A DNA stretch of 64,000 nucleotides from Lumbricus rubellus (taxonomy: Eukaryota; Annelida; Clitellata; Crassiclitellata; Lumbricidae): assembly GCA_945859605.1 (NCBI GenBank), contig OX243824.1, positions 24,993,814 through 25,057,813 of the forward strand. The letters run 5' to 3'. The notes below the pieces were generated by a model. It saw only the letters and a program-made list of their open reading frames with translations. It had not been told where the DNA came from and made no database searches. A program made the translations under genes and the position numbers. Below are positions 1 to 20,371 of the stretch, in pieces. The first letter of the stretch is position 1. The number at the start of each line of letters is the position of its first letter.

Positions 1-2442
1 GAGTGCCAATACACGGCTGGCATAAAGAAGGCTGATAGAGCTCCTTTAATCGAGGTTCCAATAATTGAAACACCGTTCGAAACCATCGTAATCGATGTAA
101 TGGGGCCATTGTCCATAAAGTCACCTTCGGGCAAACGATTTGTTTTAATCATCGTCGAACAGACTACCCATTGGATGGAGTTCATACCTCTTTCTAACGC
201 GACTGCTAAAAGCATTGCAAAGGCCCTTGTTGAGACTTTTGCTCGCACAGGTATCCCAAAATTTATCAAATCCGACAACGCCTCACACTTCAAGAACCAG
301 CTTGTACGAGGCCTAGAAGACTTGCTGGGAATTTCACCAGTCTTTTCGACGGTTGACCATCACCAATCGGCAGGAAGTGCCGAGCGGATGATTAGAGTCT
401 TGAGAGAAATGATGAGAAAAGTCATAGACGATGATCCGCGTTCATGGGAGCAGGCTCTTCCATTTCTGGCTTTCAGCTGCAGACAAATACCATCCACTGT
501 CACTGGCTCCTCTCCTTTCGAATTGTTATATTCACATGACGTCAGAGGTCCATTGCAGGTCGTACAAGACTCATGGACAGGTAAGCTACACACTGCCTCC
601 AACAAGAGAAGCGTAGTAGACTACTTGACAATGACGCAAAATCATATGAGAAAATGCTTAGAGTTAGCCACAGAGAACGCGAAGAAGGCTCGTCAGACAG
701 AAAAGACTTATTACGACAAGAAGTCTTCAAACAGAACACTGGAAATAGGCCAAGAGGTGCTGCTACTTAGACACTCTACAGAAGACAAGCTGCTTGCTAG
801 ATGGGACGGGCCTTTCGTAATTACCAGAAAACTATCTGCGGTCAATTACGAGATAATGACAGAAAAAGGGCCTAAGATATACCACATTAATATTCTGCGA
901 TTGTGGCATGCAAGGGCGTCGGATCCACACATCCCGCGAGTCAACGTAATTCTCACAGCCGAGCCATACGAAGACGACTTCGAGAGGCTTGGGTACATAG
1001 ACGATGAAGAAGAAGAAGAGGGCTCCGAAGAAGTAAACGTGTGTGATGAAAATTCATCTGAAGAGCAAAAACAGCAGCTGCAAATTCTAGTACGTGAATT
1101 TAGTGATCGCTTCACAGGAAAGTTAGGACGGACCACGTTGATCAAGCATTCGATCCATTTAAACACCGATAAACCAATTGCACCGCGATACTACAAAATT
1201 CCAGACAGTTTGCGCGAGCAGGTAAACGAGCAACTGCAACAGATGATTAATGATCAGATTATCGAGCCTTCAGAGTCACCATATGCATCTCCCATCGTCT
1301 GCGTAAGAAAGAAGGATCAATCAGTTCGCATATGTGCAGATCTGAGAGGGGTAAACGCCATCAGTGTTTCGGATGAATACCCAGCAAGTGACATGAGAGG
1401 GATTTTGGATCGGGCTGCTGGAGCCAAGTTCATAACGGGTCTAGATCTACAACAAGCGTTTTTCCAAGTGGAGCTTGATCAGAAGAGTCGACCATACACA
1501 GCGTTCAGGACGCCTTTCGGCTTGTATCAGTACACAGTTATGCCAAACGGAGCTAAGAATTTCAGTAAATGTTTTCAGCGACTGGCTGACAAAATTCTGA
1601 AGGGCGCTGAGAGTTATGCTGCCGCACACGTCGATGATTTTATAATATTTTCCACCACATGGGAGCAGCACTTACTCCACATCCGAGACGTTTTGACGAG
1701 GCTAAGAAATGCAAACCTGACCGTAAAATTAAAAAAATGTCAGTTTGCACGCAAAACAATCAAGATTCTCGGTCACGTGATTGAGGATGGCTGTGTCAAA
1801 CCTGACCCCGAAAAAGTGAATGCAATTTCGAACTACCCACTCCCAAAGACCAAGCGGCAAGTCAGGGCATTTTTGGGTATGGGAAACTTTTACAATAGGT
1901 TCATAAACAACTACGGCACCAAAGCAGCGCCCCTCACCGAACTATTGAGGAAGGACAAACCGGACAAAGTAAAATGGACGGACACGGAAGAAAATGCATT
2001 TAGAACTTTAAAAAGAGACTTGATGTCAGACAACATGCTGATACCAGCAGACATCAAGAAACCGTTCATCCTGCGCTGCGACGCAAGTGGTTCTGGGATC
2101 GGTTCGGTGCTTGCCCAGATCGATTCAAATGGCCAAGAACGACCCATAGGGTATGCAAGTAGGAAACTAATCGAAAGGGAAGCAAAAATGAGTACAGTTG
2201 AACGCGAACTCTTGTGTGTCGTCTGGTCGCTCAATCACTTCCAGCAATACACATACGGGACCAAGGTCAAGGTGTTTACCGACCATAATTGCTTAAAGTG
2301 GCTGCAAACAATGGCCAACCATAATCCTCGTTTAACTAGATGGTCCTTGGTAATTCAGCGCTACCAAATCGAGATAAATTATGTACCGGGAAAGCACAAC
2401 TCAATGGCAGACGGGTTATCTCGTTCATTCATTACCAATTGA
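1..2442 (+). CDS. Partial pol of a GMR1-like Ty3/Gypsy retrotransposon (integrase, then RT-RNase H)
   Basis: The frame is open from the window edge, so the true start is upstream of the first ATG at 100. In order one sees: the end of the integrase zinc-binding region; the integrase core with Asp in IDVMG, Asp in KSDNASHF and Glu in GSAERM; a GPY/F-like segment around WDGPFVITRKL; an acidic linker; reverse transcriptase with LDLQQAFFQ and an HVDD active site instead of the usual YxDD; then RNase H with LRCDASGSG and FTDHNCLKWL, ending at NSMADGLSRS. Integrase ahead of RT is the reverse of normal Ty3/Gypsy order and is known from the GMR1-like lineage. No internal stop is seen, so the copy could be fairly young. 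Gag, protease and the 5' LTR lie outside the window. Confidence 0.93.
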   Translation, partial: ECQYTAGIKKADRAPLIEVPIIETPFETIVIDVMGPLSIKSPSGKRFVLIIVEQTTHWMEFIPLSNATAKSIAKALVETFARTGIPKFIKSDNASHFKNQLVRGLEDLLGISPVFSTVDHHQSAGSAERMIRVLREMMRKVIDDDPRSWEQALPFLAFSCRQIPSTVTGSSPFELLYSHDVRGPLQVVQDSWTGKLHTASNKRSVVDYLTMTQNHMRKCLELATENAKKARQTEKTYYDKKSSNRTLEIGQEVLLLRHSTEDKLLARWDGPFVITRKLSAVNYEIMTEKGPKIYHINILRLWHARASDPHIPRVNVILTAEPYEDDFERLGYIDDEEEEEGSEEVNVCDENSSEEQKQQLQILVREFSDRFTGKLGRTTLIKHSIHLNTDKPIAPRYYKIPDSLREQVNEQLQQMINDQIIEPSESPYASPIVCVRKKDQSVRICADLRGVNAISVSDEYPASDMRGILDRAAGAKFITGLDLQQAFFQVELDQKSRPYTAFRTPFGLYQYTVMPNGAKNFSKCFQRLADKILKGAESYAAAHVDDFIIFSTTWEQHLLHIRDVLTRLRNANLTVKLKKCQFARKTIKILGHVIEDGCVKPDPEKVNAISNYPLPKTKRQVRAFLGMGNFYNRFINNYGTKAAPLTELLRKDKPDKVKWTDTEENAFRTLKRDLMSDNMLIPADIKKPFILRCDASGSGIGSVLAQIDSNGQERPIGYASRKLIEREAKMSTVERELLCVVWSLNHFQQYTYGTKVKVFTDHNCLKWLQTMANHNPRLTRWSLVIQRYQIEINYVPGKHNSMADGLSRSFITN

Positions 2443-5126: not shown

Positions 5127-5575
5127 CCCGTTGGAGGTGAGGTGGGGTGTGACACACCCCAGAGGTATTCTACTTTAATTTTTTGTGGAAAACGTCAAAC
5201 CAGCTTGGATTTTTTTTCTACCTTTGTGAATATGAAATACGGACACTACCAAAATTTCAGGAATTTTGAACGAACAGTTTTTTTAAATTTTAATGTATAT
5301 TTGAAGGAAATTGCGATTTTTCGTATACAAATCGAACTTACACGGGCAAAGTACACAGTGGATGGGTTCACGTTCAGGCCATCTAATAAGGATTGAAACC
5401 AGATATTTGTTCGTGATAATCGCCTGTTTAGTTGATAATTGACCATAGAAGAATAGTTTAATTCAAATTAATGTTTTCCATTAATATCCCGACTTGAAAA
5501 TAAAAATATGTGTCGGGGTTTGTCAGACCCCACCTCACCTCTAACGTTACAATGCATCACCTCACCTCCAACGGG
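5127..5575. mobile_element. piggyBac-type MITE with TTAA target duplication
   Basis: The 449-bp element starts CCCGTTGGAGGTGAGGTG and ends with its inverse, CACCTCACCTCCAACGGG. TTAA flanks it at 5123-5126 and 5576-5579. The equivalent place in copy B (33192-33195) has a single TTAA and no element, which is a natural empty site. Subterminal palindromes are present (GGGGTGTGACACACCCC near 5144-5160). There is no credible open reading frame, so it is non-autonomous. Confidence 0.92.
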
Positions 5576-5615
5576 TTAAAGAAAAGTGTTAGGCCTATAT
5601 GAAAACAAGTACTAG

Positions 5616-5621
5616 CAAACT
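5616..5621. repeat. Left target-site duplication of the Polinton (CAAACT)
   Basis: It is identical to 20366-20371 on the far side of the element. A 6-bp duplication is the expected product of a Polinton integrase. Confidence 0.93.
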
Positions 5622-6258
5622 AGTAGTAGTCTTTTTAATTCTTTGGGGGTGTTTTCCATTGAAGAAAAAATCAGTAAAATATAGGGTTAAATCCAGTTAA
5701 TTTCTTTGTCTTTTAGATAAGCTGCGCCTTTTTTTACAGAGGCTATAAATTATCAAATTACTTAATTGATGCTATAGAAACCAGTTAAATTCTTAGTCTT
5801 TTTAATTTTCTGGGGGTCTTTTATTATTTCCTGAGGGGGGTGCTCGGTAGTACAGTGGTTAGCGCGCTGAACTGTCAACCAAGAGGTCGGAGGTTCAATT
5901 CCCCGCCGGGGCAGAAATTTGTAACGAGATTTCTGTTCCTCTAGCCGACTCAGCTATGATGAGTACACGGTCAGTGGATGATGAGACGGCGAGGGAGAGG
6001 ATTGGTCACCGCCCTTTGGAAGTCTTTTATTATTTCGATCAGCAAGGAAATTAAGGTCGTAAGAATACTGTCGAAAAGTCTCTAGCTAATATATTTAGTG
6101 CGATGTGTGAATAAACGAATATCTCGAGAAAATCGGTATTGGATACGAAAATTATGCAACTACCGGTTGAATTGTTAAACGCAGCTCCCGTTCCCCCTCC
6201 GCCCGCAATTTGCATGTAATTCGCCCCATTTCTATACAGGTAGACGTTACCAGGAGCG
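5622..6258. repeat. Left terminal inverted repeat of the Polinton
   Basis: It is the reverse complement of 19729-20365, with the same length and no difference found in the stretches compared by eye. It contains a tRNA-like sequence (5841-5914) and the last 208 bases of the C1q-headed fibre gene (6051-6258). Near-identity suggests a recent insertion or homogenisation during protein-primed replication. Confidence 0.95.
5841..5914 (+). repeat. tRNA-Asp-like sequence (tRNA-derived SINE head) in left TIR
   Basis: About 73 bases resemble a tRNA. An A-box-like TAGTACAGTGGTTAGC, an anticodon loop CTGTCAA (anticodon GTC, Asp) and a B-box-like GGTTCAATTCC are spaced as in a tRNA. The acceptor and T stems contain mismatches, so a working tRNA is doubtful. 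About 110 further bases ending in CGCCCTTTGG may be SINE body. The sequence is duplicated in the other TIR. Confidence 0.55.
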
Positions 6259-7124
6259 GTACTACTGTTACCAAATTCTATGTACGTCGAAACGAAATAG
6301 TATCCGGCTTTACCGGGAGTGAAACGGGTCAGTCCCGCACTTATGACACCATCGGTTTTGAATCTTACACTATCGAAAGTAACTCTTGTGTGAGTTTTAG
6401 CGATTAAGAATTGCCAAGTTAAAGAATGAATGCTAAGCGCGGGACCGATTGAGATAGAATCTACATACTGCTTCGTAGCTGCATCGCTGGCGTTGTTGGG
6501 TTCGTGTAGTCCTGTAATGTAAGCATCATGCATAAAGATGGACTTATACACATTTATTTTAGACGGAGGAGTGCCATCGAGTGACTTAACCATCTCTAAC
6601 ATGATTTCATTGTTTATTCTAAAACGAAATCCATCCATCGATTGTAATGTAATAGGATTGTTTAACGAACATTGTAGTTTATTTCGTATACTACCTAAGA
6701 AAATAGTGAATTCTTTATTATCTCCTCTCAAGTCCTTACAACCCATTGAACGCAGACGATCGGAGCCAACGTTTAAGATTAGATCACCAGTCATGGTATC
6801 ACCAGTTTTAGACACCTTCAATGTAACTTGTTCATTAACGTATTTCTTATTCGTCAAATGATTATCGTTGGACGGAGAATCGTCGTGATTCGTTATCAAA
6901 TCAATGGCTTGACCCCAACTTAAGGCCTCATCCATTCCTGCTGTCAAAGGCTTCGTTGTGGGCAGTCCTTTAATTTTGTGACCACCCATTTTTAAATTTC
7001 CAGTCGCGATGTTTGCTCCATCCAATCGAAGAAAACTAGCATTTACTTGACTAAGAGTGACACCTCCAGCGATTACTCTTTGTGATGAACCAACATCGGT
7101 GTGACCGAATTTATCGACAGGCAT
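6051..7124 (-). CDS. Tail-fibre-like protein A with C1q-like head
   Basis: This 357-residue protein begins MPVDKFGHTD. Its N-terminal two thirds look like a trimeric phage-type fibre shaft: KTGDTMTGDL near residue 110, and a later DAATKQYVDS of the kind that ends fibre repeats. The last roughly 130 residues resemble a C1q/TNF-like jelly roll (VTFDSVRF, FTPGKAGYYFVST, then alternating beta segments). The start is supported by TATATAAA directly upstream. It lies 30 bp from a paralogue that shares the shaft but has another head. Its last 208 bases lie inside the left TIR. The probable role is attachment of the virion to its target; this is inference from architecture. Confidence 0.75.
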   Translation of the reverse strand: MPVDKFGHTDVGSSQRVIAGGVTLSQVNASFLRLDGANIATGNLKMGGHKIKGLPTTKPLTAGMDEALSWGQAIDLITNHDDSPSNDNHLTNKKYVNEQVTLKVSKTGDTMTGDLILNVGSDRLRSMGCKDLRGDNKEFTIFLGSIRNKLQCSLNNPITLQSMDGFRFRINNEIMLEMVKSLDGTPPSKINVYKSIFMHDAYITGLHEPNNASDAATKQYVDSISIGPALSIHSLTWQFLIAKTHTRVTFDSVRFKTDGVISAGLTRFTPGKAGYYFVSTYIEFGNSSTAPGNVYLYRNGANYMQIAGGGGTGAAFNNSTGSCIIFVSNTDFLEIFVYSHIALNILARDFSTVFLRP

Positions 7125-7154
7125 TTTATATATAATAATAATTTTTAATGCAGA

Positions 7155-8258
7155 TTAGTCATCGTATACATATAATTGCATTACTTGAATCCCTAGTGGA
7201 AGATCATCATCCTTTCCCTGTACTGCAACTTTATAATATTGACACGCATCCGTAGTAGAAACATTAACAAATGTCGGAACAGCCTCTGAAGGAGTTGAAG
7301 ATGTATGTAAGTGTGCAAACACTACTCCATCATTGCTAGCGTATAAATAAAAGAGAGATTCATTTACTGTTTTCAACGCAATTCTCCAAATTTTAACTGG
7401 CTCAGGACATTTAATTTGTAACCAAGGAATCATATCATCTTCACGCAAAGAACTCCAAGCTGCGTTAACATCGTCAGTGAGATTAGTGAAAGCATGGTAG
7501 GCTTTGTTTCCGGCAAAACAATCACTGGCACTAGCAACGAATCCTGTCACACTTACATCAGCTTCCAAGGGAGGAATATATCCAACGTGGCACTTTTTCA
7601 GAGATTTATCAACGTAATTCTTTGTAGCGGCATCTTGAGCTAAAAGAGGATCGCTTAAATCGTTGATATTATTACTATTCATTAGGATATTTTGATAAAC
7701 GTCGATTTTTCGATCGTTAGACGCTCTACCGATTCTCATTATATTTTCTACGCCTATTTTGCATAGTAATCCATCCGTCGATTGTAATGTAATAGGATTA
7801 TTTAACGAACATTGTAGTTTATTTCGTATACTACCTAAGAAAATAGTGAATTCTTTATTATCTCCTCTCAAGTCCTTACAACCCATTGAACGCAGACGAT
7901 CGGAGCCAACGTTTAAGAACAAGTCGCCAGTCATTGTATCACCAGTTTTAGACACTTTCGAAGCATCAACGTATTTCTTATTCGTCAAATGATTATCGTT
8001 GGACGGAGAATCGTTGTGATTCGTTATCAAATCAATGGCTTGTCCCCTACTTAAAGCTTCATCCATTCCGGCAGTCGAAGTATTCGTTACTGGGAGACCT
8101 TTTATCACATGTCCATTCATTTTTAAATTTCCAGTCGGCAGATTTGCTCCATCACATCGAAGAAAATTAGCATTTATTTGACTAAGAGTTACACCTCCAG
8201 CGATTACTCTTCGTGATGTTGCTCCAAAATCGGTGTGACCAAATTTATCGACAGGCAT
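7155..8258 (-). CDS. Tail-fibre-like protein B with discoidin-like head
   Basis: This 367-residue paralogue of protein A has the same MPVDKFGHTD start, the same GDTMTGDL repeat and a DAATKNYVDK shaft end. DNA in the shared shaft (about 7780-7990 versus 6650-6860) is almost identical, which suggests recent duplication or gene conversion. The last roughly 135 residues differ completely. AYHAFTNLTDD, WLQIKCPEPVKIWRIAL and FYLYASNDG resemble an F5/8-type (discoidin) carbohydrate-binding domain. The start is preceded by TATATAAAATG. Inferred role: an alternative receptor-binding fibre. Confidence 0.75.
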   Translation of the reverse strand: MPVDKFGHTDFGATSRRVIAGGVTLSQINANFLRCDGANLPTGNLKMNGHVIKGLPVTNTSTAGMDEALSRGQAIDLITNHNDSPSNDNHLTNKKYVDASKVSKTGDTMTGDLFLNVGSDRLRSMGCKDLRGDNKEFTIFLGSIRNKLQCSLNNPITLQSTDGLLCKIGVENIMRIGRASNDRKIDVYQNILMNSNNINDLSDPLLAQDAATKNYVDKSLKKCHVGYIPPLEADVSVTGFVASASDCFAGNKAYHAFTNLTDDVNAAWSSLREDDMIPWLQIKCPEPVKIWRIALKTVNESLFYLYASNDGVVFAHLHTSSTPSEAVPTFVNVSTTDACQYYKVAVQGKDDDLPLGIQVMQLYVYDD

Positions 8259-8277
8259 TTTATATATAAAATAATTT

Positions 8278-8703
8278 TTAATGCAAGCCGTTTATAACTT
8301 CTTGAAAATTCATTCCATCGTTCATCGTCTTCTTTAAGACGTACAAACATAAATGGCCGCAAAACACTTCGTTATCCGGCTGTATGCGTTCGCTGTTATA
8401 TAACACTGGACGGCGTAAATAGTTTATCAGTTCCAGAGGGGGAGGAAGACCGTAACTATCGAAATATATTTTCTCATTACCGCTCTTTAAGAAAGAGCAC
8501 CAGTGACTTCCCGCCCCATTAGAACCATCTAGATTCAATATCCCACACTCATTCCGTCCAGGTTTCTTCGGCAGCTCGTCTCTGAGAAATACTCCTCTAA
8601 AATTATTGATGTTTAGTTTCTTAGCCGCTTCGATTAGATCCACATTCGATAAAGCAATATTCGGTAGCACTACTCCACAAACATCGATTTGTTTGACGCT
8701 CAT
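8278..8703 (-). CDS. Adenain-like cysteine protease
   Basis: This 141-residue protein has the catalytic layout of the adenovirus maturation protease family (C5, Ulp1 fold): His in GSHWCSF, Asp in IYFDSYG, Gln in RIQPDNEVFCGHLC and Cys within FCGHLCLYVL. In Polintons and adenoviruses this enzyme cleaves capsid and core precursors during virion assembly. The length is normal for the Polinton version. It lies 17 bp downstream of polB on the same strand. The catalytic residues look intact. Confidence 0.88.
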   Translation of the reverse strand: MSVKQIDVCGVVLPNIALSNVDLIEAAKKLNINNFRGVFLRDELPKKPGRNECGILNLDGSNGAGSHWCSFLKSGNEKIYFDSYGLPPPLELINYLRRPVLYNSERIQPDNEVFCGHLCLYVLKKTMNDGMNFQEVINGLH

Positions 8704-8719
8704 TTATTTAATATAAACA

Positions 8720-11700
8720 TTAATTAAAAATTTTCAACGAGTAATGACCATAAGATAACGTACTAATTCCATCCTCCATTATTACCCGTTTATCGTCATC
8801 TGCAGATAATGCAACTTTATTGATTTCTTCTGTATAAATATCGTGATGATAAGATCTAATAACATTCATCGTTCGTTGTTGTTCTTTTTTGGTAAATAAG
8901 CAGTCTTTATAATCTTCGTGAGTAATAGTTTTCTGGACAACATTCTTCTTAATACCTTTACATTTCTTGTGCTCATCTCCAGCAGCCATCTTATAAGAAT
9001 ACAACTTTGCTCGCAACCCGATAAATTCTTTTATCTGTTTTCCACTAGCTTCATCCTTGAACATTCCAATAACTTTTTTATTTACTCCAACCTCAATACC
9101 AGATGGATGATCTCTCGGGTATTCACTCGTGTCGAATCGAGTCTTAATATCGTCTGCGATATCTGAGTAAAAGTCTTCAGTTTTAATTTCGTATGTCAAA
9201 GAATCTGTATCGGTAAATAATAATTTAGCTCTATTTCCGTATTTATCCTTGATGTAATTGTAATGAAATTCATACATCAACGTTTTGCTCAAGTCTAATA
9301 TACACATGCCAAGATATATAGGTTTATTATAGTACAATTTAGTTTTTTTCATGTGAACGGCTATTAGATTTTCATCGAAAATAGTACATCTCTCATAATT
9401 AGGTTTAGCGGCTAGTTCAATAGCCCTCTCCTCTTGACACACTAACTCTACATCAACACGATTTTCAATGTTCTCACAAGTTTTTCCAAAGACACTGTTA
9501 TTCATTAACTTGAAAAAGTCTTTCTCAAAGTCATTAGTAGCTTTCGTTCTAAGAGCTGTATTTAAATCGATATACTTTTTCAACCAATCACTTTCTTCGA
9601 ATAGTACACCTCTATGCACTTTTGTTATTTTCAAACCCAAGCTCTCATACAGCTTCAGATTATCGTAATGCAGCACATACTTCTTTTTATGGTTTAAGTT
9701 TGGAATTAACTTTTTGACTTTGTTAATCTCAATGCTTTCGGGGGCTAACGGAAAATCGTTATGCAGGTCGTGTAACTCTTTAGGATATTCCAAATCAACT
9801 TCCAATATGCATGGAATACTTCTCCAATTATTTAATTCATCTTCGTTCATCCATTTGAACCCGTGAGTAGGTAAATTTTTGATCATAGCCCATCCATATA
9901 GATTATTCGCATCCAGGTAAGTAATAAATGTAGAATTTTCGTTACTATTGAAATCGCTCATATATTTATTATTCGCTTTCCCGTAACGATTTGATATTGT
10001 GCTCACTCCTCCTCTCATCCCTTGCCTAAGCATCAGAATCATATCATAATCATTCAATAACTCCAATTTCACGCCTGTCAATTTTAAAGCGGCATCCCAG
10101 GCTAAACCAGGAGATGTAAAATACCATGCAGGGTCAAGCGTATAGTTCTTCATACACACATCTCTAAAGTTTTCGAAAACATCGGCAAGTAACAGAACAT
10201 CCGAAACGTTGTATAAATCGTGATATTCTCTGAATGTTTTGCATCCAAATTCCTTCCATACCGTTTTTGCATGCTCGTAGTCTTCATCGCTAATATTCGA
10301 ATCATTTAGCTTAGAATAGAATGCGGATTTTGGTGGTAGTTCGGTTTCATTAAAGGTAGTAAATGAATCGACGTAGTCATAAGGATATATGCCTTTTCTC
10401 AGCAAAAGATCGAGCTTCTTTCCAGTATATCGTTTCCCAATATTTTTACACTGGTCTTTGCTTAGGTTCCTCGATAAAGCATCAAGACTAGAAGCCATAA
10501 ATTTAAAACTGTCGATAAAACGCAGTTGTCGCTTGACGGTAATCTCTTTTCCCTCTTTATTTACAAACTTATCAACAACGACCTCTCTGCTAAAAGATAT
10601 ATACTTTTCCTCGTTATTAGGTATGCAATTAATTTTCTCTCCATTATTACCTCTCAGTTTCTTAATGAACAGATGACAATCGTACCCGGAAAGATTATGA
10701 AACACTACAGGGAAAAACTTGGGGACTTTATAGTTTACATTACAAATGTTATGAGCAGCCCCTCTAAATTTACCGCTAAGATGACAGTGATCTCTCACTC
10801 GGTCTTCGCCCAACGTTTTTTCACAGATATGACATATAGTAGCTCCATCAAAACACTTCTTGTCCTCTTCTGTAAATATCATCTTCTTAGGGAATTTAAA
10901 TTGATTATATATTTGTTTTATATTCTCTTCTAGTTTATCTACAAATATTTGACCAACATCATCATCTTCGCTTTCAGCCGTAAACGTCACAGGATCTTGA
11001 GAATATACACTATCGTCGAAACATTTTATGTGGTAACAAAAGGAGCTAGGAGTATGCTTTTGATATTTATTAGTGTACGACAACTCTGGATTTGGTTGGC
11101 ATGTATCGATCGGTTTTACAAAAGACTCAAAATCTGCGTAGACTATAAACGGAACCCTCATAGAATTGTTATAATTTTTAAAACTTAGCATAGTTCCTGG
11201 TTCTGGCATTTCTATTTTTTGTGCGTTATGTTGAGAGCAGTACTCATTATGGTTGTTAAGCGCTCCTGGCGTTGTGAAACCATTCATACACCTTTTACAA
11301 TAATACATCGAATTAGTCCGAAATCTCATCAATCGGTTAAAATTCTTTATCCAGCAATAATGTTTCCGTTCTCCGTTGGAAATAAGCAATAGATCTACAC
11401 AAATATCGCTTTCACAGTTAGACAGATAAAGCGGATAGACATGTTTTTCGTAACCAAATATATTACCACTAATATTATTATTTCTCTCGAATTTACCTAT
11501 CACATTAGCATGAGTCGCTACCGGAAACTCAATGCCACTCCAATTAAGTTTTTTCGATTGTTCTTTCAAAGCTTTCGTTATTTTTTCCGGATGGTCATCC
11601 ACCGGATTCAAAGCTCTAGTGATACACCATTTGAAGCATTCTTCATCGTCGTTTTTCATATTTATAATAGCCTTTTTATTAGCTAAAAAGTCGGGAAGTG

Positions 11701-12382
11701 GAATGTAAGAACTACCTCTTAAGGGGGTATATTTTACCGTATTTATATCTAATTTTACAACAGCTTTAAATCTCCAATTACTTCCTTGCATCTGAAAACT
11801 AGCAATAGACTCCATGATTTTATCCTTCTTTCTGCTGTATATTTCATTCAAGTCGGTTGCTTCTAAAATAACTTCTGCCCTGGAAACGAATGGTATATCC
11901 TCAGAAGTCACTATTCCAGATTTCATATCTACTCGTTCCATAGTACAAGTAAGAACCAAATTAGTCTTTGTCTGGCGATTACTCGACAACAGATTAACTA
12001 CCTGCGGTCTGACGAAATCAAGAAACGACGAGGCATCCATTCCATTAATTCCATCTATTCTATACTGCTTGGTGAATCCTTTAATAGCCGACGCTGTTTC
12101 CCGAATTTTAATTTTATCGAATATCCTGGAAACAGTTGACTTCAACGATTCTAGTTTTTCATTTACGACTTTATTGTCTCGTTCAGGCACATAACTAAGT
12201 AGCCAATCCGCAAATTCATTTATTTTTGTCCTAACCCTATTTTTGTATTTTCTCTTAGGCGCTACTGGTTTGTATTTACCAGGTGTGGGTGTAAGCGTAG
12301 GAACCTTAATGTCAGGAACCGATGAGTCGAGCAAGTGTTCAACATGGTTCATGTTTCTTAAACTACTTTTCTTTAAATACAT
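8720..12382 (-). CDS. Protein-primed family B DNA polymerase
   Basis: This 1220-residue replicative polymerase is of the DNA_pol_B_2 (organellar and viral) type. There is a C2H2-like finger near residues 360-382 (YCKRCMNGF). Exonuclease motif I is YADFES near 415, an HNH-like cysteine/histidine insert (CHICEKTL...DHCHLSGKFRG) lies near 517-550, exo II is FHNLSGYD and exo III is YNVSDVLLLAD. Polymerase motif A is YLDANNLYGW, motif B is KLMNNSVFGKT and motif C is FTDTDS. All key Asp residues are present and the frame has no stops, so the gene looks functional. It should copy the element from a terminal protein at the TIR ends. No separate terminal-protein gene is seen; the N-terminal 400 residues could supply that role. 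Confidence 0.95.
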   Translation of the reverse strand: MYLKKSSLRNMNHVEHLLDSSVPDIKVPTLTPTPGKYKPVAPKRKYKNRVRTKINEFADWLLSYVPERDNKVVNEKLESLKSTVSRIFDKIKIRETASAIKGFTKQYRIDGINGMDASSFLDFVRPQVVNLLSSNRQTKTNLVLTCTMERVDMKSGIVTSEDIPFVSRAEVILEATDLNEIYSRKKDKIMESIASFQMQGSNWRFKAVVKLDINTVKYTPLRGSSYIPLPDFLANKKAIINMKNDDEECFKWCITRALNPVDDHPEKITKALKEQSKKLNWSGIEFPVATHANVIGKFERNNNISGNIFGYEKHVYPLYLSNCESDICVDLLLISNGERKHYCWIKNFNRLMRFRTNSMYYCKRCMNGFTTPGALNNHNEYCSQHNAQKIEMPEPGTMLSFKNYNNSMRVPFIVYADFESFVKPIDTCQPNPELSYTNKYQKHTPSSFCYHIKCFDDSVYSQDPVTFTAESEDDDVGQIFVDKLEENIKQIYNQFKFPKKMIFTEEDKKCFDGATICHICEKTLGEDRVRDHCHLSGKFRGAAHNICNVNYKVPKFFPVVFHNLSGYDCHLFIKKLRGNNGEKINCIPNNEEKYISFSREVVVDKFVNKEGKEITVKRQLRFIDSFKFMASSLDALSRNLSKDQCKNIGKRYTGKKLDLLLRKGIYPYDYVDSFTTFNETELPPKSAFYSKLNDSNISDEDYEHAKTVWKEFGCKTFREYHDLYNVSDVLLLADVFENFRDVCMKNYTLDPAWYFTSPGLAWDAALKLTGVKLELLNDYDMILMLRQGMRGGVSTISNRYGKANNKYMSDFNSNENSTFITYLDANNLYGWAMIKNLPTHGFKWMNEDELNNWRSIPCILEVDLEYPKELHDLHNDFPLAPESIEINKVKKLIPNLNHKKKYVLHYDNLKLYESLGLKITKVHRGVLFEESDWLKKYIDLNTALRTKATNDFEKDFFKLMNNSVFGKTCENIENRVDVELVCQEERAIELAAKPNYERCTIFDENLIAVHMKKTKLYYNKPIYLGMCILDLSKTLMYEFHYNYIKDKYGNRAKLLFTDTDSLTYEIKTEDFYSDIADDIKTRFDTSEYPRDHPSGIEVGVNKKVIGMFKDEASGKQIKEFIGLRAKLYSYKMAAGDEHKKCKGIKKNVVQKTITHEDYKDCLFTKKEQQRTMNVIRSYHHDIYTEEINKVALSADDDKRVIMEDGISTLSYGHYSLKIFN

Positions 12383-12439
12383 TTTATCTTACCACGCAAA
12401 AATATTAAAATCCATAATACACTTTAATTTCATACCTTT

Positions 12440-12769
12440 CTATCTCTCATACACTTTAATTTCGTATCTATCTCTCCAGACATTTCCGTTATGATAAGCT
12501 ATTATACCAGCACTCTGACCATGCGCCTTAGCAGCTTTATACATCGATGGATACGAGGTAACAACGCCAGTCTCTCGATCTATAATATCTACTCTTCTCG
12601 GTTGTTTCCTGATACTACCCAACGTGTCATGTCGATATGACACAGACTTGTAGTCCGTCGGAAGAATATTCTTTTCAATCAGTACAGCTATCATTTGAGG
12701 TTTGTTGAGATGCGAAGTGCCTGTAACATCGTGATGCTTGGCTAACATTCTAAGCTCTGGTAGCTTCAT
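12440..12769 (-). CDS. SAP-like DNA-binding protein
   Basis: This 109-residue basic protein opens with KLPELRMLAKHHDV...LNKPQMIAVLIEK, the helix-turn-helix pattern of a SAP/Rho-N motif that binds AT-rich DNA. The C-terminal part (GVVTSYPSMYKAAKAHG...IAYHNGNVWRDRY) resembles NUMOD/IENR-type helix-turn-helix repeats found beside homing nucleases. Its ATG overlaps the stop of the upstream capsid fragment by four bases (ATGA). Role inferred: DNA binding in packaging or chromatin. No nuclease catalytic motif is seen. Confidence 0.6.
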   Translation of the reverse strand: MKLPELRMLAKHHDVTGTSHLNKPQMIAVLIEKNILPTDYKSVSYRHDTLGSIRKQPRRVDIIDRETGVVTSYPSMYKAAKAHGQSAGIIAYHNGNVWRDRYEIKVYER

Positions 12770-13275
12770 AATATATAAGTATTCTTTAAATCAATGAGAA
12801 AGCTTTGTCTAGTGGCAAAGCCGAGGTTGTCCGCAATAACAGCAGTCGCTCCAGTGTCTTTATACCACAGCTGATTTAAGCCTTGAGTCAACTGAAAATC
12901 GTTTGGATACGTAAGTAAACCGAGCATCGTTGTAGCTTGACCCGGATGAAATAGCGTTTCGATTTCTTGATTAGATAACTGATAGGATATTTGACTGAAT
13001 AGATACATAAGCCCATTATTCGTAAGAGCGACTAAATCGGCATTAACGTATGCGGTGTCATCAGCTTTAATTAGTCTTCCGTCGAATTGTAGATATGACT
13101 CTGCTGGGTGACTGTATAAGTCTTGTAATTCAATATTTATTCTAATTTCACCAGAACTGTTAAGGTTAGTTCTCGCTACAGGTTCGTACTCATGCCATTC
13201 GTATCGCTCGATACCTTCATCGATCAATGGTTGCTCTGTGAATCTTAGAATATCGGATTGCATTTTATTATACAT
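12766..13275 (-). pseudogene. Truncated hexon-like major capsid protein (N-terminal part)
   Basis: This 169-residue product is rich in beta strands (SGEIRINIELQDLY, AYVNADLVALTNNGLMYLF, HPGQATTMLGLLTYP). It resembles the first jelly roll of Polinton/adintovirus double-jelly-roll capsid proteins, which are normally well over twice this length. The match stops near residue 160, and the last residues look like intergenic AT-rich sequence read through to a stop that overlaps the next ATG. I infer an internal deletion that removed the second jelly roll. An expressed short form cannot be excluded. Confidence 0.72.
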
Positions 13276-13320
13276 ATATTTTTAAATAAGAAAATAAACT
13301 TAAGCAAAATAAATTTAAAC

Positions 13321-13674
13321 TTAAGCCATTTTCAAACCACCTCCGTTTAGGCGTTTTACTAGATCTTGAATTCTAATAGCTCCTCCCGTCATTTGCGGAT
13401 TCGACCCGAGTAATCTAGCTAGAATGACTTTAGTTTCCTGAGTTATCGGCTGCTGAACGGTGGTTGGTGGGAGTATCTTATTGAGTAATCGTTTTCCAAC
13501 GTCGATAGCCTTATCCTTAGCAACACTCCCAATCTCTTTGACAGCTGTGCTCGCAATTTGTTTGGCTGCATTCGAAGTTAGTAGCCTCTTGAGAAATCCT
13601 GCAATGGAATCGAATATTCCTGCTCCACCGACAACGTGTACTATTTTATAACTTCTTCTCGCAACGACCAGCAT
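13321..13674 (-). CDS. Small virion-type protein with adenain-like cleavage sites
   Basis: This 117-residue basic protein has an amphipathic alanine-rich middle (FLKRLLTSNAAKQIAS). Three glycine sites resemble the adenovirus protease consensus (M/I/L)xGG-x: VVGG before A near residue 18, MTGG before A near 97 and LNGG before G near 113. By position and composition it could be a core or membrane-lytic peptide like adenoviral pVI or pX, but sequence similarity alone does not decide this. Confidence 0.55.
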   Translation of the reverse strand: MLVVARRSYKIVHVVGGAGIFDSIAGFLKRLLTSNAAKQIASTAVKEIGSVAKDKAIDVGKRLLNKILPPTTVQQPITQETKVILARLLGSNPQMTGGAIRIQDLVKRLNGGGLKMA

Positions 13675-13715
13675 TTCTATATCATCAATTTTTAATTAGA
13701 TCATCAATTTTTAAA

Positions 13716-13916
13716 TTAGATCGTCAATTTTTTATATTCATCTTTGGTTATCACTCTTTGTCTTAGTAACTCATCCGTCATACCTACAATTTCATTTCTT
13801 ACACCCGTATTTCCCGCTTTGTAGCTATATATTCGCAACTCTAATTGTTTTACTAATTCGTTAGGATCTGAAGGAATGGTAATTATTCCGCTTCCTGTTT
13901 TACCTCTTAACTTCAT
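13716..13916 (-). pseudogene. C-terminal, out-of-frame part of the gene at 13955-14617
   Basis: The 66-residue frame (KLRGKTGSGIITIPSDPNEL and following) is open further upstream, through a Lys/Pro/Asn-rich linker to about 14010, where it overlaps the 3' end of the neighbouring frame. The two frames differ by one base (a -1 shift along the gene). The simplest reading is one gene broken by an indel near 14005-14015; a programmed shift is possible. The start codon at 13916 is therefore probably not a real start. Confidence 0.6.
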
Positions 13917-13954
13917 GTAATCGTCCCATATGGGTTTTATTATCTTTGCATATT

Positions 13955-14617
13955 TTACACTTCTAGACGATTTAGGTTTGTTTGGTTTATTTGGCTGACT
14001 CGCCTGGCATTCGTTTTAATTAGAATCTCGGCGTATTCTTCGAGATCACGATTATCATAAATTGAACTGTTTGGACTAGCTAACGTTAACAATTCCCATA
14101 ATCCTGGAGTTCCTTGATAAGTTGTGGTTCCAACTGTAATATCATTTCCTTGGATTGAGGCTTCGCTGTCACCGATGTAGAATTTTCCATCTCTTGATCT
14201 TAATCCGAATGTTGTATCCACAAGTCTTCTATCGGAAGCATATTTTTTAAGGTATTCAACTGCAATATTTCCTAATTCTAACCTTCTAATGTCTTCTAAT
14301 GGGCCATCGTCATCGTACGCCTCTATAGACGGGTACTGGGGAAATTGAATAGTTTTCAACGAATCTGGAAGTGATTTTAGAGCGAGTGATGTTGCTGCAG
14401 AGTTATCTTTTATTGTCGACAGCAAAGCGTTTTGTTCTTTCGAAATTGCTGATTGAGAGTCGACTATTGGTTTGTAGATTTTCGTTAATTCTCGTTGAAG
14501 TCCAAGATCGTCTATTCTCTCTGAAAGAAAGTTTTGTTTAATATTTTTTTTCGTTTTTAAAAACTCTTCGATAATAAAATCTCTTTTTGCAGGATCGCTA
14601 ATTTTCAGTAGCGACAT
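13955..14617 (-). CDS. Conserved Polinton structural-type protein, frameshifted at its 3' end
   Basis: This 220-residue frame opens MSLLKISDPAKRDFIIEEFL. It has a helical N-terminal half and a compact C-terminal module (YIGDSEASIQGNDI, YQGTPGLWELL). I do not recognise an enzyme. It lies between capsid-type genes and is probably a virion or morphogenesis protein. The natural C-terminus seems to continue in another frame through 13716. The start is supported by an A-rich TATA-like run (14618-14635). Confidence 0.6.
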   Translation of the reverse strand: MSLLKISDPAKRDFIIEEFLKTKKNIKQNFLSERIDDLGLQRELTKIYKPIVDSQSAISKEQNALLSTIKDNSAATSLALKSLPDSLKTIQFPQYPSIEAYDDDGPLEDIRRLELGNIAVEYLKKYASDRRLVDTTFGLRSRDGKFYIGDSEASIQGNDITVGTTTYQGTPGLWELLTLASPNSSIYDNRDLEEYAEILIKTNARRVSQINQTNLNRLEV

Positions 14618-14691
14618 TTTTTATTATAAGTATAATGTTTAAAACGTAAACATAAAACGTAAACATAAAACGTAAACATAAAACGTACAAT

Positions 14692-15078
14692 TTATGCATC
14701 GTAGTAATTAACGTAACATATGGAGTCTTTTTCGTTTATAGTAACTGCTGAATCGGAGTTGTTTTGTATTGTAATTATTATATCCTCTGCGTCCTCTAGT
14801 ACTGTACCATCTTGAAGACTCAGTCTGAGTTGTTTCAACTTCTGTCTAAGAGAGACTAGACACATTCCACTGGTCATTCGGACTCCAAGGCCTACTTCTA
14901 CTGTAATATTTGTCTTTGGTTCAATCGTTATCGCTTGCTGAGCAAAAATCTCATATCTGTCGCCTGCTCGTTGTCTTGCAGGAGCATGAGTGACCACTTT
15001 AGGCAACCAAATTATTGTACTCACACGAGGCTTCCGTTTGGTGATAAATTTGTGTATTGGGTGACCGTATCCAGACAT
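14692..15078 (-). CDS. dUTPase-fold-like small protein without catalytic motifs
   Basis: This 128-residue protein has an AGDRYEIF...ITIEPKTNITVEVGLGVRM...IIITIQNNSDSAVTINEKDSICYV pattern that follows the strand order of trimeric dUTPases: an AGxD-like start, a GxxV/I middle and a final N...I..GD-like turn. The active-site segments expected of a dUTPase (a GRSSL-type loop and a catalytic Asp-Tyr loop) are not visible. It may be a structural derivative of that fold. TATATAA lies directly before the ATG. A 17-base unit ending in AACATAAAACGT repeats about four times in the gap at 14640-14690. Confidence 0.45.
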   Translation of the reverse strand: MSGYGHPIHKFITKRKPRVSTIIWLPKVVTHAPARQRAGDRYEIFAQQAITIEPKTNITVEVGLGVRMTSGMCLVSLRQKLKQLRLSLQDGTVLEDAEDIIITIQNNSDSAVTINEKDSICYVNYYDA

Positions 15079-15094
15079 TTATATAAGAGATTGT

Positions 15095-15718: not shown

Positions 15719-15742
15719 CTTATATTAAATATAAACTTTAAA

Positions 15743-16516
15743 TTAAACCTCTCTTATGTGAAATCGTATCGACAATTCCTCACCTCTTAAATTAATTAGT
15801 TTTCCATTTTGGTCTATTAGTTTTGTTTCCATCGATGAAATAGAGTATAGCGTTATTGGAAGATATACGAGATTGTGAGGAGATTCGATTATCTTGTAAC
15901 CAGGCCCGACCGATGGAAAGAAAGAATAAATTATGTTCTCCGTAGTTCCGTTGGCATACGATGATCCTATTACATCACTCGTAACTCGTAAACTATTCAC
16001 GCTGTTTATATCGACTATGTGCTCGGATTCGTTATATCCTTCGGAGTATACACGACTCTGAAATCCTAGAACGGTGCTAATTGAATTTGGTACTGTAAAA
16101 TCAACTTTATAGTTCTCATCAATTTCCAAAACAGCCTTCAAAGTATTGTTATTTGGTTGCAACTTTATACATTGACCATGACCTTCTTCTTTTAGAATTC
16201 TCTGTATGTAATCGTTTAAGTCTTCGATTTCATAGCAACCGGTTGGAATGTCTAAATCTTCCCACGTTACACCGTTATCTGACGAATATACGAATTTATT
16301 ATTTGTTTCGTCTATATTGGGAAAACTGTAGTAAGTTTCAAGATTAACAAGGGCCATTTCATACTTCTTACTTTTGTCCAGTTCGATTAGTGGATTAAAT
16401 TTCGTTCGAATTCGTGTGCTCCTTTCGCTCAACAAAATGCAAAACGATTCTTTAGCCTCTGTGTTGCGTGCAATCGTTTGAGTATTAGATAAAATTTCGT
16501 CAAGAAGGGTTTCCAT
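15743..16516 (-). CDS. Penton-like minor capsid protein
   Basis: This 257-residue protein opens METLLDEILSN. It has an ETYYSFPNIDETNN segment, a CYEIEDLNDYIQRIL helix and many short beta strands to the end (LSIRFHIREV). The layout matches the single-jelly-roll minor capsid (penton) proteins of Polintons and adintoviruses, which form capsid vertices. The length is normal and no lesion is seen. It sits next to the packaging ATPase, as is usual in these elements. Confidence 0.72.
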   Translation of the reverse strand: METLLDEILSNTQTIARNTEAKESFCILLSERSTRIRTKFNPLIELDKSKKYEMALVNLETYYSFPNIDETNNKFVYSSDNGVTWEDLDIPTGCYEIEDLNDYIQRILKEEGHGQCIKLQPNNNTLKAVLEIDENYKVDFTVPNSISTVLGFQSRVYSEGYNESEHIVDINSVNSLRVTSDVIGSSYANGTTENIIYSFFPSVGPGYKIIESPHNLVYLPITLYSISSMETKLIDQNGKLINLRGEELSIRFHIREV

Positions 16517-16582
16517 TTTAGATAGCTATTTTTAAACCTAGAATATAAAATCTTAAATTTTGTTATCATTTTATTATTGCTT

Positions 16583-17359
16583 TTATTTAATGTAAAATGT
16601 ATCTAATCCAGATCTGTACCTGCCCTTATTTGTTTTACTAGTAAGGTCTATAACCACAAAACCATGCGTTTCATCCCATGCAGTTTTGCATAGTTTACGA
16701 AATTCTTCAATAGTCATATCATCTACACCTATATGATCGCTGTATATGTGGTTAATATTTTTAAGGTCTTGAGGGAACAAACATATAAAGTTGGCATTCT
16801 CTCTTATAGTTTGTCTGGGCAGCTTGAAATAATTTTGTGCTAGGTAAAAGCAGTCTACATTACTATGCCTACCTCTTATATAATAGGATTCGCATTTATT
16901 TTGTCGCTCTAACTGTAAATCATCAAAAATCATGAGATTCTTCTTATCTCGACTTAAGTCTCGTGGATCTGGAACATCTTCAGAGGTTTCAAAGAACTTG
17001 CATTCTATATCCGATTTCTTTTCCATGTTTTTAGACATCTCCTCGACTACGGCGGTCGGTGATACATTTAATTTCATTATCTCATCTCTATTATCGAAAA
17101 GTCTTATAATTGCTTCCTTTGGTAATTTCTCTTCGAATGCTTTCTTTAGTATCTTGTATTCTGATTGAAAAAGACTTTTTCCAAAGATATGTAGGTTATC
17201 GTAATCTAACCAACCAGGTCTCAGTAATAAATTAAGTAGTAATATTGTCTTGCCGCATTGAGACTTACCTACGATCAAACCTCTGATGCTTCTTGGTAGG
17301 AGAGGACTGTTAAAGCGTTTAGATGTATCTTCATTCCATGACAGGTCATGGACTTCCAT
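16583..17359 (-). CDS. FtsK/HerA-type genome packaging ATPase (A32-like)
   Basis: This 258-residue protein has Walker A in GLIVGKSQCGKTILLLNLL (residues 29-47) and Walker B in NLMIFDDLQLERQ (about 140-152). A downstream FYLAQNYFKLP stretch fits the sensor region. These ATPases pump viral DNA into preformed capsids. Size and motifs are normal. It is divergently placed from the PLA2 gene with only 20 bp between the start codons. Confidence 0.92.
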   Translation of the reverse strand: MEVHDLSWNEDTSKRFNSPLLPRSIRGLIVGKSQCGKTILLLNLLLRPGWLDYDNLHIFGKSLFQSEYKILKKAFEEKLPKEAIIRLFDNRDEIMKLNVSPTAVVEEMSKNMEKKSDIECKFFETSEDVPDPRDLSRDKKNLMIFDDLQLERQNKCESYYIRGRHSNVDCFYLAQNYFKLPRQTIRENANFICLFPQDLKNINHIYSDHIGVDDMTIEEFRKLCKTAWDETHGFVVIDLTSKTNKGRYRSGLDTFYIK

Positions 17360-17916: not shown

Positions 17917-17942
17917 GATGGACAGACGAACTTGCTGACGAA

Positions 17943-18833
17943 TTGCATAAACCTATAGTCAGGAAGTTTAGGAAGCGAGTTGTTTATGTTCAGGGAGTGG
18001 ACAAATTTTGGGCGGCTGACTTGATTGACATGCAGGCTTATGCTAAATTTAATTCTGGTGTGAAATATTTGTTAAGCGTCATTGATATATTCTCCAAGTA
18101 TGCATTTATTCAGCCGTTAAAAGATAAGCGCGGAGAATCTGTGGCAGATGCTTTCGTTAAAATATTTAATACGAGCAAAAGAAGGGGTGAAAAACTTTGG
18201 GTCGATAAAGGAACAGAATTCTATAATAAACAGGTAAAATCATTAGGTATGCAGTTGTACTCAACTGAGAATGAAGAGAAATCTTGTATCGTAGAAAGAT
18301 TTAATAGAACAGTAAAAGAGAAGATGTTTAAATATTTTACAGCAAACTCAACTCAGAGATATATCGATGTTTTAGATAATATGGTTAATTTATACAACAA
18401 CACAAGACATTCTTCCATAAAAATGACTCCTGTTAAAGCGAGTATCAAAGCAAACGAATGGGTTGTGTGGATGAATCTATATGGGGACGCTGTACCTGAA
18501 ACTGTTAAACCTAAATTTTCAGTAGGAGATAAAGTAAGAATTTCTAAGAAGAAAAAGACATTTGAGAAAGGCTACACAAATCGTTGGACACAGGAAGTTT
18601 TTACTATAACACACATTCAGTACACAGACCCTTTAACCTATAAAATCTCTGACTATCATGGAGAAGAAATAAAAGGGACATTTTATGAAGCTGAGTTACA
18701 ATCGACAACGCAAGATACATTTAAAATAGAAAAGATTATAAGGAAAAGAGGAAATCGGTCTTTGGTGAAATGGTTAGGCTATGATGATTCATTCAATTCA
18801 TGGATTGATAATAAAAACTTGATGTCATTGTGA
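17943..18833 (+). CDS. Retroviral-type integrase with chromodomain
   Basis: The catalytic D, D, E triad is visible: AADLIDM, WVDKGTEFYN and CIVERFNRT. A C-terminal chromodomain (IEKIIRKRGNRSLVKWLGY...SWI) should direct insertion to marked chromatin. No ATG precedes the core. The frame is open upstream through WTDELADELHKPI to the A10 run at 17902-17911, and 17943 is only a TTG. The protein is therefore likely read through from the PLA2 frame by a -1 shift, or a former fusion has been broken by an indel. It makes the 6-bp target duplication seen at the ends. The usual HHCC zinc finger is missing from this reading. Confidence 0.9.
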   Translation: MHKPIVRKFRKRVVYVQGVDKFWAADLIDMQAYAKFNSGVKYLLSVIDIFSKYAFIQPLKDKRGESVADAFVKIFNTSKRRGEKLWVDKGTEFYNKQVKSLGMQLYSTENEEKSCIVERFNRTVKEKMFKYFTANSTQRYIDVLDNMVNLYNNTRHSSIKMTPVKASIKANEWVVWMNLYGDAVPETVKPKFSVGDKVRISKKKKTFEKGYTNRWTQEVFTITHIQYTDPLTYKISDYHGEEIKGTFYEAELQSTTQDTFKIEKIIRKRGNRSLVKWLGYDDSFNSWIDNKNLMSL

Positions 18834-19728: not shown

Positions 19729-19936
19729 CGCTCCTGGTAACGTCTACCTGTATAGAAATGGGGCGAATTACATGCAAATTGCGGGCGGAGGGGGAACGGG
19801 AGCTGCGTTTAACAATTCAACCGGTAGTTGCATAATTTTCGTATCCAATACCGATTTTCTCGAGATATTCGTTTATTCACACATCGCACTAAATATATTA
19901 GCTAGAGACTTTTCGACAGTATTCTTACGACCTTAA
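19729..19936 (+). pseudogene. Headless-5' copy of the C1q-like fibre head in the right TIR
   Basis: The plus strand encodes the final 68-69 residues of fibre A, from about APGNVYLYRNGAN to STVFLRP, because the TIR covers the 3' end of that gene. No shaft or start belongs to it. It cannot be expressed as a fibre, but it is an intact sequence donor for the left end. Confidence 0.85.
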
Positions 19937-20072
19937 TTTCCTTGCTGATCGAAATAATAAAAGACTTCCAAAGGGCGGTGACCAATCCTCTCCCTCGCCG
20001 TCTCATCATCCACTGACCGTGTACTCATCATAGCTGAGTCGGCTAGAGGAACAGAAATCTCGTTACAAATTT

Positions 20073-20146
20073 CTGCCCCGGCGGGGAATTGAACCTCCGA
20101 CCTCTTGGTTGACAGTTCAGCGCGCTAACCACTGTACTACCGAGCA
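20073..20146 (-). repeat. tRNA-Asp-like sequence in right TIR
   Basis: This is the mirror copy of 5841-5914 on the minus strand, carried by the right inverted repeat, with the same box A, anticodon loop and box B. Confidence 0.55.
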
Positions 20147-20365
20147 CCCCCCTCAGGAAATAATAAAAGACCCCCAGAAAATTAAAAAGACTAAGAATTT
20201 AACTGGTTTCTATAGCATCAATTAAGTAATTTGATAATTTATAGCCTCTGTAAAAAAAGGCGCAGCTTATCTAAAAGACAAAGAAATTAACTGGATTTAA
20301 CCCTATATTTTACTGATTTTTTCTTCAATGGAAAACACCCCCAAAGAATTAAAAAGACTACTACT

Positions 20366-20371
20366 CAAACT
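20366..20371. repeat. Right target-site duplication of the Polinton (CAAACT)
   Basis: It is identical to 5616-5621. The host sequence that follows continues the segmental duplication in register with copy B after 33250. Confidence 0.93.

What the first reader, a model, noticed from the sequence alone, without database searches (positions are those of the whole stretch)
6051..8258. Twin tail fibres: one shaft, two unrelated heads (C1q-like and discoidin-like)
Two adjacent genes share the MPVDKFGHTD start and a nearly identical shaft with GDTMTGDL and DAATK-YVD motifs, then end in different domains: one reads like C1q, the other like F5/8 discoidin. Both head types are animal lectin or recognition folds. 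This looks like a modular host-recognition cassette in a Polinton, comparable to phage receptor-binding diversification.
Basis: partly seen in the sequence, partly recalled or inferred. Interest (0 to 1): 0.9.

Follow-up and report, generated by a model that had tools for sequence, protein, structure and literature searches.

The report
Virus-like transposon with swappable fibre heads
A virus-like mobile element in an animal-type genome carries two neighbouring genes for spike-like fibres that share a phage-type stalk but end in two different recognition domains, and relatives show that such heads have been swapped repeatedly, as expected of a virus that changes what it sticks to.

Summary
Two intact genes (6051-7124 and 7155-8258, minus strand) lie at the left end of a 14.7-kb Polinton/Maverick with 637-bp identical terminal repeats and a 6-bp target duplication. 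They share an upstream box, an N-terminal peptide (MPVDKFGHTD) and an upper shaft (87.8% DNA identity over 500 columns). The lower shaft is diverged and the heads are unrelated. Structure prediction puts head A in the C1q/TNF fold and head B in the discoidin/CBM32 fold. The shaft matches phage tail-fibre families. A 118-bp identical tract points to recent recombination between the twins. Of 250 related proteins plus these two, 198 with a usable head fall into 12 head clusters, ten with anchored members. On shaft trees the two head types need 7-8 changes, and trees holding the C1q-type heads together are rejected. In the clearest pair the shaft ends are 92% identical and the heads 15%, switching right after the DAATKxYVD-type motif. 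The best reading is a modular receptor-binding fibre cassette. Phage-like modular fibres are already reported in protist Polinton-like viruses, so this is a new variant of a known kind. Receptor binding, trimerisation and capsid attachment are inferred; this copy's capsid gene may be incomplete.

The parts
5616..5621 (.). left target-site duplication CAAACT
   Evidence: read and compared; identical 6 bp at the right end
5622..6258 (.). left terminal inverted repeat, 637 bp, 100% identical to the right one; holds the last 68 codons and stop of fibre gene A
6051..7124 (-). fibre gene A (357 aa): anchor, shaft, C1q/TNF-fold head
6054..6458 (-). head of A (residues 223-357), C1q/TNF fold; pLDDT of 10-residue blocks from 231 on is 60-90
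7020..7124 (-). N-terminal anchor of A (residues 1-35, MPVDKFGHTD...)
   Evidence: this type of motif near the N-terminus of 212 of 252 proteins
6661..6778 (-). 118-bp tract of A identical to B (A residues 116-155): recent recombination or gene conversion
   Evidence: 1 of 20000 shuffles as long; codon window 121-150 has 0 of 19.7 synonymous sites changed
7125..7151 (-). upstream box GCATTAAAAATTATTATTATATATAAA of A, shared with B
7155..8258 (-). fibre gene B (367 aa): anchor, shaft, discoidin/CBM32-fold head
7158..7607 (-). head of B (residues 218-367), discoidin/F5-F8 type C/CBM32 fold
7801..7918 (-). counterpart in B of the 118-bp identical tract
   Evidence: offset of 1140 bp from repeat family D3 applied
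8154..8258 (-). N-terminal anchor of B (residues 1-35)
8259..8284 (-). upstream box GCATTAAAAATTATTTTATATATAAA of B
8278..8703 (-). 141-aa ORF, adenain-like cysteine protease by recall (no Pfam match)
8720..12382 (-). 1220-aa ORF, protein-primed type DNA polymerase B by size, place and recall
   Evidence: Pfam gives only weak, unrelated stretches below cut-off
15743..16516 (-). 257-aa ORF, penton-type minor capsid protein by recall
   Evidence: no Pfam family above cut-off
16583..17359 (-). genome-packaging ATPase (Pox_A32, E 4.8e-7)
17943..18833 (+). retrovirus-like integrase with chromodomain
   Evidence: rve E 4.9e-6, Chromo E 2.3e-4, both just below the Pfam cut-off
19729..19936 (+). second copy of the 3' end of gene A, inside the right terminal repeat
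19729..20365 (.). right terminal inverted repeat
20366..20371 (.). right target-site duplication CAAACT

Best explanation
The two genes encode paired receptor-binding fibres of a Polinton (a virus-like transposon). Each fibre is modular: a conserved N-terminal peptide that docks on the particle, a phage-type shaft built from GDTMTG/DAATKxYVD units, and a C-terminal head that binds the target cell. One shaft carries a C1q/TNF-type knob and the other a discoidin/CBM32-type sugar-binding domain, so one element can present two binding specificities. New heads come in by recombination at the seam right behind the last DAATKxYVD, and the twin shafts also recombine with each other. Shown here: the shared anchor and shaft, the two folds (predicted), kinship of the shaft to phage tail fibres, repeated head exchange (by trees and pairs), and recombination between the twins. 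Inferred: trimer formation, attachment to the capsid, receptor binding, and expression of both fibres.
For: Different predicted folds for the heads and family-level Pfam support: PF00754 in 29 of 39, C1q in 3 of 20, BclA_C in 3 of 20. Shaft matches to phage tail-fibre families. 198 heads in 12 sequence clusters, ten with anchored members; none of 66 cluster pairs above 14.7% HHalign probability, while halves of the same cluster give 99.9-100%. Head types A and B need 7-8 changes on four shaft trees of 61 proteins; trees holding the A heads together rejected on three segments, p-AU 4e-11, 6e-73 and 4e-4. P0073 (discoidin) and P0124 (C1q) share 92% of the last 60 shaft residues with 15% head identity. 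118-bp identical tract between the twins. Shared upstream box, seen only before A and B among the 14 ORFs looked at. Polinton ends and target duplication.
Against: No binding, trimer or particle data. The shaft part of both models is mostly low confidence (blocks of pLDDT 31-77), and only monomers were predicted. A itself has no C1q Pfam match (only BclA_C at E 0.1) and B itself no Pfam hit; the folds rest on prediction and on relatives. No full-length major capsid ORF was seen in this copy. The genomic context of the relatives could not be read, so that they sit in Polintons is assumed. Trees are short (51-220 columns), by the quick method, with long branches, and head types are still more clustered on them than shuffled labels. 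Some 'heads' in the census include leftover shaft where the motif pattern missed a degenerate repeat (seen examples).
Confidence: 0.76

Rival explanations
1. A and B are not two independent fibres but subunits of one mixed fibre: the matching shafts co-assemble into heterotrimers with two kinds of head, as proposed for the three consecutive tail proteins of virophage DSLV2.
For: Adjacent genes, shared upstream box, upper shaft kept alike with one tract fully identical. Precedent: abstract and section 22 of PMC12724248.
Against: The lower shaft next to the heads has diverged (29 of 64), where trimer contacts should matter. C1q/TNF-type heads form trimers by themselves in known cases (established knowledge). 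Whether relatives also come in pairs could not be seen, as their contigs were not readable.
Confidence: 0.13
2. The heads bind something other than the cell that carries the element, for example bacterial or microbial surface glycans used for hitch-hiking or for another role.
For: Phage-type shaft, phage C1q-type knobs at about equal structural distance, CBM32-like fold known from bacterial sugar-binding modules. DSLV2 virophage tails bind cyanobacterial lipopolysaccharide (abstract of PMC12724248).
Against: The discoidin and C1q folds also occur in animal recognition proteins. The named anchored relatives come from animal genomes (Nematostella, Dreissena). No evidence for a bacterial stage.
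Confidence: 0.15
3. These are relics: fibre genes once used by a virus, now carried passively by a decaying transposon, with the head differences of no present use.
For: The element seems to lack a full major capsid gene (no ORF over 258 aa between 12440 and 17359) and has a satellite-like array near its right end.
Against: Both fibre ORFs are intact and the terminal repeats are 100% identical, which fits a recent insertion. Decay of this copy would not touch the family-wide head exchange.
Confidence: 0.12
4. Artefact: an assembly error or tandem duplication joined unrelated sequences.
For: None beyond the single-assembly origin of the window.
Against: P0050 is 74% identical to A over its full length, and full-length proteins up to 58% identical to B have B's architecture, so each head-shaft join is seen in other datasets.
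Confidence: 0.02

Closest known systems
Phage-like modular fibre proteins of protist Polinton-like viruses (PMC12220804, section 13, part 1 of 2 read)
   Same: Virus-like integrated elements with phage-type fibre repeats and C-terminal recognition domains; discoidin domains reported, mainly in Rhizaria and glaucophyte elements.
   Different: Those described are often large proteins with laminin G, collagen or endosialidase-chaperone modules, from protists. Here the element is a Polinton with integrase and packaging ATPase in an animal-type genome. The two fibres are short twins with one anchor and different heads, and head exchange at a fixed seam is traced on trees.
Tail fibres of tailed phages (PHROG 1640, 8378, 26630; PF03906)
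   Same: GDTMTG and DAATKxYVD shaft units; variable C-terminal heads including C1q-like knobs.
   Different: No tail is known for Polintons (recall). The MPVDKFG anchor lies outside the best matched stretches with one exception (P0171 residues 4-68 to phrog_25848, E 5.9e-6).
Adenovirus fibre, including adenoviruses with two fibre genes (recalled)
   Same: Works alike: N-terminal docking peptide, thin shaft, C-terminal trimeric head; two fibre genes side by side in some.
   Different: Shaft repeat family and head folds differ (recall for adenovirus); no adenovirus fibre family was listed in Pfam at E up to 1.
Tripartite tail proteins of virophage DSLV2 (PMC12724248; abstract, outline and section 22 seen)
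   Same: Consecutive phage-like tail genes in a small DNA virus; modelled to stick out from the capsid.
   Different: Three different subunits proposed as a heterotrimer related to T4 gp37; head exchange on one shaft is not in the parts I saw.
Tail fibres of extracellular contractile injection systems (PMC12923769, passages seen)
   Same: Fixed N-terminal docking domain with exchangeable C-terminal domains, C1q among them.
   Different: Bacterial and archaeal injection machines, not eukaryotic mobile elements.

Membership tests
Polinton/Maverick | terminal inverted repeats of hundreds of bp and 6-bp target duplication | tested here: met
   637 bp, identical; CAAACT on both sides
Polinton/Maverick | integrase with chromodomain and packaging ATPase | tested here: met
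   Pox_A32 E 4.8e-7 above cut-off; rve and Chromo just below cut-off but in order
Polinton/Maverick | protein-primed family B DNA polymerase | tested here: inconclusive
   1220-aa ORF in place; Pfam gave no polymerase match; assignment by recall
Polinton/Maverick | double jelly-roll major capsid gene | tested here: inconclusive
   no ORF of the expected length; 169-aa ORF 12766-13275 resembles its N-terminal part by recall; one search found no relative in viral contigs, only chance-level PDB hits
Phage-type tail fibre (DAATK shaft) | sequence match to phage tail-fibre families | tested here: met
Phage-type tail fibre (DAATK shaft) | homotrimeric beta-structured shaft | not tested
   monomer models show short strands (A about 104-192, B about 136-198) with low to middling confidence
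C1q/TNF fold (head A) | compact jelly-roll fold | tested here: met
C1q family PF00386 (head A) | Pfam profile match | tested here: inconclusive
   A itself no match; 3 of 20 alignment members, best E 2.9e-4
F5/8 type C / discoidin PF00754 (head B) | Pfam profile match in the family and fold | tested here: met
F5/8 type C / discoidin (head B) | carbohydrate or lipid binding | not testable with these tools
   needs a binding assay
Adenovirus fibre | adenovirus fibre shaft or knob profile | tested here: inconclusive
   no Pfam adenovirus fibre family listed at E up to 1 for A or B

The most novel reading that the evidence does not exclude
Polintons of animals run a head-exchange system: one anchor-and-shaft chassis on which at least ten unrelated heads are traded at the DAATKxYVD seam, helped by keeping two fibre genes side by side whose shafts recombine, and by placing the outer fibre gene partly inside the terminal repeat, where ends of different copies can convert each other. 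That would make them host-range-shifting viruses with an infectious phase.
Probability: 0.35. Interest if true: 0.82.

Novelty: new variant of a known kind. Interest (0 to 1): 0.68.

Why it matters
Whether animal Polintons ever leave the cell as viruses is open as far as I know; one abstract seen in a search listing says of Polintons that an extracellular form had yet to be detected (PMC7805220, 2021). A fibre family with a constant docking end and heads exchanged repeatedly is what selection for binding new cells would leave behind. It gives concrete proteins, two small heads predicted to fold well, to test for receptors. It also places a phage tail-fibre shaft in an element of an animal-type genome.

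Tried and rejected
Own-genome survey: the genome search (own) was asked ten times with the same request and never answered, so sister copies in the genome are unknown.

The anchor as a DNA pattern gave 6 stretches, none a fibre by translation. The 169-aa ORF, the polymerase and two relatives gave no usable locus. So no second Polinton with its gene order could be read.

Artefact or tandem duplication: rejected because both architectures are found elsewhere.

'Heads share one fold': rejected by the two models; the A and B head profiles give HHalign probability 0.9%. All 66 cluster pairs were answered, highest 14.7% (which also ran the positive controls).

tRNA gene in the terminal repeat: ARAGORN finds none in 5500-20500.

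First alignments A1 and A2 were cut one codon wrong at the start and were replaced by A3 and A4.

Papers: no hits for the fibre words asked in PMC11071308, PMC10120064 or PMC9952930; one passing mention of fibre genes in PMC11071296; PMC8905726 only counts Mavericks in a clam (passages). My ten library searches listed no paper, by title and start of abstract, on paired fibre genes with exchanged heads in animal Polintons; some searches showed only the top 20, 12 and 12 of longer lists, and subscription papers are not held.

Full report
What is there. The window holds a 14,744-bp Polinton at 5622-20365. Its terminal inverted repeats are 637 bp long and identical, flanked by the 6-bp duplication CAAACT on both sides. 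Inside are ORFs for a packaging ATPase (Pox_A32, E 4.8e-7) and an integrase with chromodomain. A 1220-aa polymerase-sized ORF, a protease-like ORF and a penton-like ORF are named by recall; Pfam did not identify them. The two fibre genes, A (6051-7124) and B (7155-8258), lie at the left end, next to the protease-like ORF. Both are intact.

The twins compared. A and B share an upstream box ending TATATATAAA directly before the ATG. Among the 14 ORFs of the element looked at, only these two have it. Over 500 alignment columns the DNA is 87.8% identical. Per segment the protein identity is 93/112 (A 1-115), 39/40 (116-155), 29/64 (156-222) and 24/116 in the heads. In the same segments A against its nearest full-length relative P0050 is 105/115, 20/39, 46/63 and 93/135. 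So A is P0050-like at both ends and B-like in the middle. At the DNA level this middle is a 118-bp fully identical run (A nt 347-464), reached in 1 of 20,000 shuffles of the mismatch columns. The codon window 121-150 has no synonymous change in 19.7 sites, while the other five windows up to A residue 180 have synonymous differences of 0.14-0.42. This points to recent recombination or gene conversion between the twins. The middle-segment tree joins A to B and next to discoidin-type relatives, which suggests B as the donor there. In the upper segment it is B that groups with A and the C1q-headed P0050 (97% SH-aLRT), so B's upper shaft is itself of the other lineage: both twins are mosaics.

The shaft. 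A and B match PHROG tail-fibre families around GDTMTGDL and DAATKxYVD (best shaft match 2.5e-9 for A, 6.5e-7 for B). Relatives do so much more strongly (PHROG 1640 to 5.6e-27) and pass the PF03906 cut-off in 5 of the 10 scanned. tblastn against 50,697 phage records gave 8 weak hits for A and 1 for B, 7 of these 9 in genes annotated as tail fibre; one of the A hits covers the head (residues 224-338, E 1e-4, hypothetical protein of a Methylophilales phage). The shaft is thus kin to phage fibre repeats. Trimer formation was not modelled.

The family. Three searches (227, 244 and 208 hits; the best 120 of each listed) gave 250 different proteins. With A and B, 212 of 252 carry the MPVDKFG-type anchor within the first 60 residues. 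34 lack a DAATK-like motif and 20 have heads under 70 aa, and these 54 were dropped. The remaining 198 heads fall into 12 sequence clusters by single linkage: 111 joined to head B, 40, 23, 12 joined to head A, 5 and seven singletons. Ten clusters contain anchored members. None of the 66 pairs of cluster profiles exceeded 14.7% HHalign probability, while alternate halves of the five larger clusters gave 99.9-100% (for the three largest clusters only the last 150 residues were used, 93 of 111, 40 of 40 and 22 of 23 heads). Singletons make weak profiles, some 'heads' hold leftover shaft, and some clusters may share a fold. Only Nematostella vectensis and Dreissena polymorpha are named as animal sources, plus one archaeal MAG protein (P0210) without the anchor; many others lie on unnamed contigs of 0.1-9 Mb.

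Head exchange. On 61 proteins with A- or B-type heads (11 and 50), the upper, middle, lower and whole shaft trees need 8, 8, 7 and 7 changes of head type, of which well-supported branches force 6, 3, 3 and 6. Holding the A heads together is rejected on the three segments tested (p-AU 4.4e-11, 6.3e-73, 4.4e-4). These are quick trees on 51-220 columns with long branches, so the count is a guide; the labels are still more clustered than random (shuffled mean about 10.3). The plain pairs are more telling: P0073 (discoidin) and P0124 (C1q) agree in 92% of the last 60 shaft residues and in 15% of the head, and the agreement stops right after AATKKYVD. Of 12,202 pairs with different head clusters, 135 have at least 60% identity in the last 60 shaft residues, in seven cluster combinations.

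Place at the end. The left terminal repeat covers the last 68 codons and stop of A, so the right end carries a second copy of that head fragment (19729-19936). If terminal repeats of such elements are kept alike by copying, the outer head would be exposed to exchange between copies. That is inference.

Reading. The best account is paired, modular receptor-binding fibres with heads traded at a fixed seam. It works like adenovirus fibres and phage fibres without being shown to be either. Known precedents are the phage-like fibres of protist Polinton-like viruses (PMC12220804, section 13 part 1), virophage DSLV2 tails (PMC12724248) and contractile injection system fibres (PMC12923769, passages). 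New here, as far as my searches show, are the twin arrangement in a Polinton of an animal-type genome, the shared anchor across ten head clusters, and traced exchange and conversion. Against an active role of this copy: no ORF long enough for a full major capsid protein was seen; the 169-aa ORF at 12766-13275 looks, by recall, like its N-terminal part. The host species is not known to me; 'animal-type' rests on the named relatives and, by recall, on the surrounding Gypsy-like elements.

Noticed in passing
12766-13275 (-): 169-aa ORF that by recall resembles the N-terminal part of a Polinton major capsid protein; no full-length capsid ORF seen, so this copy may lack a working capsid gene. Described only.
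   Followed up: partly
19729-19936 (+): Second copy of the 3' end of fibre gene A inside the right terminal repeat, a head fragment without shaft.
   Followed up: yes
17380-17916 (+): 178-aa protein with DUF5679 (E 6.5e-12) followed by a phospholipase A2-like domain PF08398 (E 5.5e-10; parvovirus-type by recall), a candidate membrane-escape enzyme.
   Followed up: no
18945-19455: A-rich array of roughly 13-bp units (AAAAAACCTAG-like) between integrase and right terminal repeat; a 28-bp piece of the integrase gene (18542) is repeated at 18946.
   Followed up: no
5850-5915 and its mirror in the right repeat: tRNA-like or SINE-like stretch (by eye) inside both terminal repeats; ARAGORN does not call a tRNA in 5500-20500.
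   Followed up: partly
100-2442 and 49360-54820 (+): Gypsy-like retrotransposon ORFs (by recall) on both sides of the Polinton; not scanned.
   Followed up: no
14692-15078 (-): 128-aa ORF with a weak dUTPase match (PF00692 E 0.019, below cut-off).
   Followed up: no
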